From the NCBI RefSeq assembly GCF_002243045.1, contig NZ_MBKP01000019.1, forward strand, positions 59,054 through 123,053: a stretch of DNA of 64,000 nucleotides, read 5' to 3'. The DNA is from Methanolobus psychrotolerans (lineage in GTDB: Archaea; Halobacteriota; Methanosarcinia; Methanosarcinales; Methanosarcinaceae). The position numbers and the translations under genes are program-made. This document shows, piece by piece, positions 39,393-64,000 of the stretch (positions are counted from its first letter, which is position 1; every line of letters begins with the position of its first letter). The notes beneath the pieces are model-generated. The model was not told the origin of the DNA, searched no databases, and was given only the letters and a program-made list of their open reading frames with translations.

Positions 39393-40556
39393 ATGATCAA
39401 TAAAAAATTATACAAGTTATTGATAGTAATACTATTGGTAGCCATAGTTACTATCTCGATGGGGGGGACGGTAAATGCGAATAGTATTGTTGCACCTCCT
39501 ACAGTTACAAAGACTGCATCACCAACAAATATCAATATTGCTGGTAGTGGCACAAATGAATATACTACAGTAGCCATAACGGTAACTGGGGCAGGCAGCA
39601 GTACTACGGCAGCTGTGCCTGTAGATATTGTGTTTGCAATAGACAGTTCTGGAAGTATGGCCGGTACGAAAATAGCTGCTGCAAAATCTGCTGCAAAAGA
39701 TTTCGTAGGAAGGCTGGACGCGAAGGATCAGGCAGGTGTTGTCAGCTGGGCTTCCTCCGTAAGATCTACGACGGCTTTAACCAGCGATTTCTCCTCTGTA
39801 AATACTTCCATAGGCACTATGTATGCAAGTGGAGGTACAAATCTTGATCGTGGCCTGACTGGAGCAATAAATGTCTTAAATGCAAATACGAGAACTGGTC
39901 CGTCGGCAGAAGTAATTCTCTTTCTGAGCGATGGAGATGGGACTTATACTCCAAGCACTGCAGTGAATGCTGCTGCCGCAGGGTACACGATTTATAGCAT
40001 AGGTCTTGGTAACCCGGGTGCTGGTGCTGAAGGCAAATTAAAGGATATGGCTAATAAAACAGGAGGGAAGTATTTCTCATCACCAACTTCAGATAACCTT
40101 GATGCTATCTATCAGGAGATCTATTCTGAAGTGGCCACTTCTACAATTCCTCATTACGTGGATGTCATTGAAGTAACCCAGGATTACATAGTTGAAGAAA
40201 GCTCATTTTCCATTACTCCGGATAGCATAACTACAGATGCTAGTGGAAATACAGTGATAACATGGACCAATATAGGTATGGGTGATTCTAACCCTGACAT
40301 GTCTAATGATGAAACTGTTGTCCTGTCTTTTGAAGCAAAGTGTTCTCAGAGTGGAAGTAACTTGCCCGTTGATGTTCTTGGAGATGCAAAAGTGTGCTAC
40401 AAGGACAGTGAAGGGAATGCTGCAGGATGTGTGGATATCCCTCAGGCTTACATAAATGTTGGGACAACGAATGAAGAAATTCCAGAGTTTCCTACCATAG
40501 CAATCCCTATGGTTGCAATAATTGGACTGGCATTTGTCTTCAGTAGGAGAGAATAA
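39393..40556 (+). CDS. Secreted VWA-domain protein with PEF-CTERM sorting signal
   Basis: Signal peptide; DIVFAIDSSGSMAGTKIAAAKSAAKDF (MIDAS); C-terminal IPEFPTIAIPMVAIIGLAFVFSRRE. Confidence 0.93.
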   Translation: MINKKLYKLLIVILLVAIVTISMGGTVNANSIVAPPTVTKTASPTNINIAGSGTNEYTTVAITVTGAGSSTTAAVPVDIVFAIDSSGSMAGTKIAAAKSAAKDFVGRLDAKDQAGVVSWASSVRSTTALTSDFSSVNTSIGTMYASGGTNLDRGLTGAINVLNANTRTGPSAEVILFLSDGDGTYTPSTAVNAAAAGYTIYSIGLGNPGAGAEGKLKDMANKTGGKYFSSPTSDNLDAIYQEIYSEVATSTIPHYVDVIEVTQDYIVEESSFSITPDSITTDASGNTVITWTNIGMGDSNPDMSNDETVVLSFEAKCSQSGSNLPVDVLGDAKVCYKDSEGNAAGCVDIPQAYINVGTTNEEIPEFPTIAIPMVAIIGLAFVFSRRE

Positions 40557-40870
40557 TTCATTATCCTCTCTTTTTTACTGGAAAATTTAAAGTCCATTAC
40601 TCCTACAATTTCTACTATACATCAATAATCCTCATTGAAGTATTTTTTTCAACAAAAACAATATCAATAACTGATTTTACCTTTCTTTATAGAATATTTG
40701 CAACTATATATAATGGTGTGAGTTTCCTGATACAGCTTGCTGTATCAACACTTTAAGTAAATATTAGACATGCCATTAAATCACAAATTTAAAAGATTTC
40801 CAGATTTCTAACCTGAAACAAATACAATCATCCTTTGCTTATTCTGTTGCACGTAATACTTAGAGTATTT

Positions 40871-41080
40871 CTCCATTTGTAACTATTCAGCCTATCACAA
40901 TCTGCCTATTGATACTAATTTCATCGAAACGGAGATGTTTGCTCATTAACAGCCTAATAATCAAAAAAGCAATCAATAGCAACAATCAAAATAAATAGTC
41001 ATAATAAAATTTACGTCTCAAATTTGTGTTAAGATTGCGATTGATAGTGTTGTTATCAGGCTGAATAGCTACCTCCATTT
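40871..41080. mobile_element. MITE-like element with IS66-type ends (element 40879-41072; TSD CTCCATTT on both sides)
   Basis: Left GTAACTATTCAGCCT, right AGGCTGAATAGCTAC (14/15 inverted match); perfect 8-bp direct repeats CTCCATTT at 40871-40878 and 41073-41080; no internal transposase. Confidence 0.85.
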
Positions 41081-41207
41081 TAAAATAAGACATCAAAGTA
41101 AAGTGAGAAGTATGTGTTTGACAGAGACAATGGTCAATATATTTAGACAGATCGTGCATAATTATATGATGAATAAACTCCTCATTCTGTACATCCAGTT
41201 GTCAGTC

Positions 41208-41882
41208 CTAAATTCCCATCTTTGTATTCTTGATAATATCGATAAAATCCTGCGTTTCCTTTTTTACATCTTCACTACATAAAACTGCTGATATTGCAAC
41301 CAAGCTGTCAGCACCATCCTTGATAACACTTTTACAATTCTGTTTATTAATACCGCCAATTGCAACAACGGGGATAGATATAGCATCCTTCACAACCCTT
41401 ATGCTTTCTGGACCAATCCCATTACCTGCATCATTTTTGGTAGTTGTGTCAAAGATCGGACTCAGGCCAACATAATCAGCACCGCTTTTTTCGGCCTCCT
41501 GGGCTTCCTCAACATTGTGGACTGTGAGACCGATTATCTTATCTTTACCCAGTAAAGCTCTGGCAGTAGCTATGGGCATATCATCCTGGCCTATATGGAC
41601 TCCATCGGCATCAACTGCCATGGCAACGTCAACCCTGTCATTCACAAGGAATATTGCTTTGCTGCCACACAGATTTTTTATCTGTACGGCTTCAAAGATC
41701 ATATCTTTTGTACTTCTTGACTTTTCTCTGTACTGGACTATCCTGCAACCAGCAGCAACTGCATCCTCTACATCTGACAGCGTTCCTTTTTTAGACAGGC
41801 TTGAATCGGTCACCAGATAAAAGTCTATAAGCTCTAGCAAAGATCTTTTTTGGTTCATGGTGAACTCAGTAATCTTCGACAT
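41208..41882 (-). CDS. thiE: Thiamine-phosphate synthase
   Basis: [45 protein letters not shown]. Confidence 0.95.
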
Positions 41883-63770: not shown

Positions 63771-64000
63771 GTAACTATTCAGCCTAGCTCCCTTCCACCA
63801 AGCTGATTTCTCTCTCTACGATCAATTCTGCAATATTGGAATAAGTGAACCCTCATAGAATATTGCATTAATCGAGTCTATAACAGACATGGAATTCTTG
63901 CTAACAGTAGAAACGTATCCTCTTATCCGGCAGAAATTTCTCGCACCTTGTTCACTACGGAAGGTACCGGATATCTTCTGTTGTACTTTCGTCATTCTGA
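63771..64000. mobile_element. IS66-family insertion sequence (partial; terminus at 63771, continues past window)
   Basis: Terminus GTAACTATTCAGCCTAGC at 63771 and adjacent C-terminal IS66 transposase. Confidence 0.85.
63822..64000 (-). CDS. IS66-family transposase, C-terminal part (partial)
   Basis: Minus-strand: ...RMTKVQQKISGTFRSEQGARNFCRIRGYVSTVSKNSMSVIDSINAIFYEGSLIPILQN*, characteristic IS66 C-terminus. Confidence 0.9.
   Translation of the reverse strand, partial: RMTKVQQKISGTFRSEQGARNFCRIRGYVSTVSKNSMSVIDSINAIFYEGSLIPILQN

What the first reader, a model, noticed from the sequence alone, without database searches (positions are those of the whole stretch)
40871..41080. 194-bp IS66-derived MITE with intact TSD
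In the spacer after the VWA gene, GTAACTATTCAGCCT (40879) and AGGCTGAATAGCTAC (ending 41072) form terminal inverted repeats (14/15 match). They are flanked by perfect 8-bp direct repeats CTCCATTT. GTAA-type ends and 8-bp duplications are established hallmarks of the IS66 family. The first 16 nt are identical to the end of the IS66-family element at 63771. There is no ORF inside, so this looks like a non-autonomous element mobilised in trans. The unmutated TSD suggests recent insertion.
Basis: partly seen in the sequence, partly recalled or inferred. Interest (0 to 1): 0.7.

Follow-up and report, generated by a model that had tools for sequence, protein, structure and literature searches.

The report
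Length-locked IS66-type MITE in methanogen
The 194-base segment is a short jumping DNA element with no gene of its own that shares its ends with an IS66-type jumping gene in the same genome; related copies, 121 of them in one relative, are spread through methanogens and are almost all 194-197 bases long, which is the only unusual point.

Summary
It is a real, multi-copy MITE. The genome has 10 copies, 6 with perfect, different 8-bp duplications. Homologues occur in Methanolobus, Methanosarcina and Methanohalophilus. One Methanolobus genome carries 121 exact-ended copies beside 31 full-length IS66 (ISBst12-like, single-ORF) elements with the same ends and 8-bp duplications.

The empty-site test passes: the window copy sits in a decayed IS5-family remnant, and other copies of that remnant align through the joined flanks. 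A nested MITE-in-MITE gives the same proof.

"IS66-derived" is not shown: only 15-17 terminal bases are shared with IS66, so "IS66-mobilised" is better.

The surprise is length. In 112 Methanosarcinaceae genomes, exact-ended elements are almost all 191-197 bp, despite up to 43% divergence, no coding potential and no conserved fold beyond the end stem. An unrelated ANME-3-type family with the same ends is also 195-196 bp. I infer a geometric constraint on pairing the ends; a 10.5-bp helical period was tested and is not established.

The parts
40871..40878 (.). left 8-bp target duplication CTCCATTT
   Evidence: sequence; present once in the reconstructed empty site
40879..41072 (+). 194-bp MITE, non-coding
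   Evidence: 10 copies in this genome; homologues across Methanosarcinaceae
40879..40893 (+). left terminal inverted repeat GTAACTATTCAGCCT
   Evidence: identical to the IS66 end at 63771
41058..41072 (-). right terminal inverted repeat, GTAGCTATTCAGCCT on the minus strand (one mismatch)
   Evidence: the sister copy on C106 shares the variant and has its own different TSD, so a lineage with this variant end has moved
41073..41080 (.). right 8-bp target duplication CTCCATTT
40592..41129 (-). host site: decayed 5' part of an IS5-family transposase gene plus its leader, split by the MITE (remnant about 40592-40878 and 41081-41129)
   Evidence: the open homologue in L304 matches NF033579 (IS5 family), E 5.5e-32 but below the curated cut-off
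63771..64000 (-). transposase-3' end of an IS66 (ISBst12-type) element with the same 16 terminal bases; cut by the contig end
   Evidence: PF03050 copies elsewhere in the genome

Best explanation
The element is a MITE: a gene-less transposon whose terminal inverted repeats are recognised in trans by the transposase of a resident IS66-family element of the single-ORF ISBst12 type, which inserts it into A/T-rich, mostly intergenic DNA with an 8-bp target duplication. Shown: the anatomy, the copy number, the distinct 8-bp duplications, the shared ends, the co-occurrence with IS66, the empty sites and a burst of near-identical copies in one relative. Inferred: that the IS66 transposase is the enzyme, and that the near-fixed length reflects a constraint on bringing two closely spaced ends together in the transposition complex.
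For: TIR and 8-bp TSD are shared by MITEs and IS66: in the fetched loci 110 MITEs and 19 IS66 have perfect 8-bp duplications, 113 distinct sequences among 129. IS66 identity of the partner: PF03050 E 5.6e-50, NF033517 E 7.1e-93. G020 has 31 full-length IS66 with an intact 495-aa frame (36 PF03050 matches in all) and 121 exact-ended MITEs. Co-occurrence in 112 Methanosarcinaceae genomes: 21 of 25 MITE+ genomes have IS66 against 25 of 87 MITE- genomes, p 1e-6; within the genus p 0.008 (inputs). Empty sites: IS5-like remnants, and a nested MITE in L171 (396 = 194+8+194 bp) whose outer copy is again 194 bp when the inner copy and one duplication are removed. The sister copy differs at 3/194 positions. 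Length: 15 of 20 subfamily representatives are exactly 194 bp over about 646 inferred substitutions, with seven 1-nt gaps, all in single-copy rows. In 112 genomes only two TIR pairs lie at 120-180 bp.
Against: No transposition was observed. No intact IS66 transposase is assembled in this genome; IS copies break the contigs, so intact copies may exist but are not seen. Four MITE+ genomes lack any IS66 match, which fits relics or incomplete assemblies but is not proof. IS66 and MITE share no consistent internal sequence, so the origin is unexplained. The length constraint has no experimental support, and bacterial elements with the same TIR vary from 161 to 271 bp.
Confidence: 0.93

Rival explanations
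1. The MITE is a simple internal-deletion derivative of a resident IS66 copy ('IS66-derived').
For: Shared 15-17 terminal bases, including the asymmetric CCTGA / CCTA next to the ends. One 47-bp match of the window copy to IS66.
Against: Across 20 subfamilies and three IS66 elements, best internal scores (19-30) lie within the range of shuffled MITEs (means 21-23, maxima 25-36); the window copy's match recurs in no other subfamily.
Confidence: 0.12
2. The element is a conserved structured RNA or small-protein locus that happens to have TIRs.
For: Near-fixed length with few indels; the window copy folds better than shuffles (z -3.76).
Against: All frames broken across subfamilies; no 3-base periodicity; the consensus fold keeps little beyond the TIR stem; no relevant Rfam match; nearly every copy lies at a different target duplication.
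Confidence: 0.03
3. The near-fixed length has no mechanistic meaning; it only reflects few active source lineages and rare indels.
For: Amplified subfamilies descend from few source copies; MITEAba12 is also 113 bp in 90% of copies (PMC6382973).
Against: Seven gaps over about 646 inferred substitutions, against 4-12 gap openings per 28-71 mismatches in the IS5-like remnant aligned in the same genomes (a rough control); the unrelated ANME-3-type family is also 195-196 bp.
Confidence: 0.4

Closest known systems
IS66 family, ISBst12 group (for example ISDge4 of Deinococcus geothermalis)
   Same: 8-bp direct repeat, single transposase ORF and TIRs GTGACTACTCAGCA / GTAACTGCTCAGCA close to GTAACTATTCAGCC (PMC12898284)
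   Different: The window element has no transposase and is 194 bp instead of about 1.6 kb
Archaeal MITEs of the 2013 survey PMC3852290
   Same: Short, gene-less, multi-copy elements in Methanosarcina and relatives that match their partner IS only at the borders, generally under 20 nt
   Different: None of the 18 new MITEs in its Table 4 is assigned to IS66; the 26 reported earlier could not be checked here
MITEAba12 (113 bp, Acinetobacter, partner ISAba12)
   Same: Identity to the partner confined to the TIR; length 111-114 bp, 90% at 113 (PMC6382973)
   Different: 9-bp duplications, a different partner IS, and a highly conserved sequence; here length holds at up to 43% divergence
Paramecium internal eliminated sequences
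   Same: Element lengths constrained, interpreted as DNA looping in a transpososome-like complex (PMC3464196)
   Different: There the sizes show a clear ~10 bp period; here a period was tested and not established

Membership tests
MITE | short, no transposase gene | tested here: met
   194 bp; all frames broken
MITE | terminal inverted repeats | tested here: met
   14/15; the consensus fold keeps the TIR stem
MITE | multi-copy at different sites with target duplications | tested here: met
   10 copies here, 6 with perfect 8-bp TSD; 110 MITEs with perfect TSD in the fetched loci
MITE | insertion shown by an empty site | tested here: met
   IS5-like remnants read through the joined flanks; nested MITE
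MITE | mobilised in trans by a partner transposase | not testable with these tools
   only co-occurrence and shared ends
IS66 family (ISBst12 group) as partner | ends shared with an element encoding an IS66 transposase | tested here: met
   1622-bp elements with the same TIR; PF03050 and NF033517
IS66 family (ISBst12 group) as partner | 8-bp duplications | tested here: met
   exactly 8 bp in 129 elements
IS66 family (ISBst12 group) as partner | intact transposase in the host genome | tested here: inconclusive
   all assembled copies broken or partial, contigs end inside the IS; intact in G020 and G021
Internal-deletion derivative of IS66 | sequence homology to IS66 inside the TIRs | tested here: not met
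   scores at shuffle level

The most novel reading that the evidence does not exclude
Selection on transposition fixes the end-to-end distance of these elements at 194-197 bp because the two ends must meet in the IS66-type transposition complex on a short DNA loop, so the family is a natural length-and-phase experiment for a poorly characterised transposase family; the unrelated ANME-3-type family reached the same length independently.
Probability: 0.3. Interest if true: 0.6.

Novelty: new member of a known kind. Interest (0 to 1): 0.4.

Why it matters
It adds a Methanosarcinaceae-wide MITE family tied to the ISBst12 group of IS66, whose transposition is poorly characterised, and identifies a relative with 121 exact-ended copies and intact transposases, a good system for testing mobilisation in trans. 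If the length constraint is real, these elements record what spacing between ends the transposition complex tolerates.

Tried and rejected
Coding potential and 3-base periodicity: rejected. Conserved RNA structure and Rfam: nothing beyond the TIR stem. IS66 internal homology: not found. A 10.5-bp helical period in element lengths: weak (R 0.32, p 0.03) and hardly clearer than other periods tested (p 0.04-0.12), so not claimed; that length list was typed by hand. The Anaerolineales 196/197 versus 205/206 pair looked helical but reflects a 9-base repeat GATTACGCA. The same TSD CTCCATTT in a G020 copy suggested an orthologous site; the flanking genes differ, so it is independent. An earlier count said 7 of 10 copies have perfect duplications; a recount, with L005, gives 6.

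Full report
Observation. The sequence is as described: a 194-bp unit at 40879-41072, 15-bp terminal inverted repeats with one mismatch, and CTCCATTT on both sides. It lies between a VWA-domain gene (39393-40556) and a thiamine-phosphate synthase gene (41208-41882).

Copies in this genome. The full unit has 10 copies of 193-194 bp at 70-100% identity. Six have perfect 8-bp duplications, all different. The closest copy (contig 106) differs at 3 of 194 positions and shares the GTAG variant of the right end, yet has a different duplication. So a lineage with that variant end has moved, and the window insertion is probably recent.

Empty site. Matching the flanks to 27 genomes of the genus showed that the 300 bp upstream belong to another repeat. 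With the two flanks joined and one CTCCATTT kept, other copies align across the junction (L298: 350 bp, E 3.8e-56, against 310 bp, E 1.4e-50, for the occupied sequence). The host repeat is the decayed 5' part of an IS5-family transposase gene; its homologue in L304 matches the IS5 model at E 5.5e-32, below the curated cut-off.

Partner. The same ends bound 1622-bp elements with one 495-aa IS66 transposase. Single-ORF IS66 elements with similar ends and an 8-bp duplication form the ISBst12 group (PMC12898284). In relative G020 there are 36 matches to the transposase, 31 of them full length with an intact 495-aa frame, and 121 exact-ended MITEs. Read from 400 kb of it, these are two 194-bp subfamilies. 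In the window's genome every assembled transposase copy is broken or partial, and contigs end about 210-230 bp inside IS ends, so intact copies cannot be excluded.

Target choice. In 378 kb of G020, 7 of 33 MITEs with duplications lie in ORFs of 120 aa or more, against 75% of random positions. Targets are A/T-rich, most strictly just outside the duplication. Four adjacent pairs in 400 kb are spaced exactly 7 bp, against an expected 0.008 for any one spacing. The duplications there fit a target made of 7 bp plus the terminal base of the neighbouring element, so element ends themselves serve as targets (inference).

Origin. Beyond 15-17 terminal bases no consistent similarity to IS66 was found. 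That is usual for archaeal MITEs (PMC3852290). 'IS66-mobilised' is therefore safer than 'IS66-derived'.

Length. Twenty subfamily representatives from the genus differ by up to 84 substitutions, yet 15 are exactly 194 bp and the rest 191-193. The tree implies about 646 substitutions against seven 1-nt gaps, all in representatives that stand for one copy. In 112 family genomes, listed exact-ended elements of 180-210 bp are 191-197 bp, with one at 206 (for G020 only part of the 121 is listed), and only two TIR pairs occur at 120-180 bp. Above 210 bp six archaeal genomes were examined, with none found. Methanosarcina 195-197-bp elements are homologous to the window's (z about 5-10); ANME-3-type 195-196-bp elements are not detectably so (z about 0-2). 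Bacterial elements with the same ends range more widely, 161-271 bp. I read this as a constraint on end pairing, with precedent in IS50 experiments cited by the Paramecium study and in Paramecium excised sequences (PMC3464196), but it is inference and a helical period was not established.

Verdict. It is a new member of a known kind; the length conservation is the part worth an experiment.

Noticed in passing
L173 16462-16470, L176 13962-13970, L182 11380-11388, L183 6128-6136: Four pairs of elements in G020 are spaced exactly 7 bp; the duplications fit a target that includes the terminal base of the neighbour, and insertion next to element ends is strongly enriched.
   Followed up: partly
window 40871-40878; L109; L197: The same duplication CTCCATTT recurs at three sites with different flanks in three genomes of two genera, though it is not a typical A/T-only target.
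   Followed up: partly
G119 (L212, L275): A proteobacterial MAG carries at least 56 copies of an unrelated element with the same 12-nt ends, about 218-263 bp, with frequent indels, unlike the archaeal family.
   Followed up: no
L171 9980-10375: A MITE inserted inside another MITE, 396 bp = 194 + 8 + 194.
   Followed up: yes
window 40592-41129: Decayed IS5-family 5' remnant, a repeat found at several places in other genomes of the genus.
   Followed up: partly
G043 (15 IS66 matches, 493-aa frames): A relative of another genus has many intact IS66 transposases but no exact-ended MITE of 180-210 bp.
   Followed up: no
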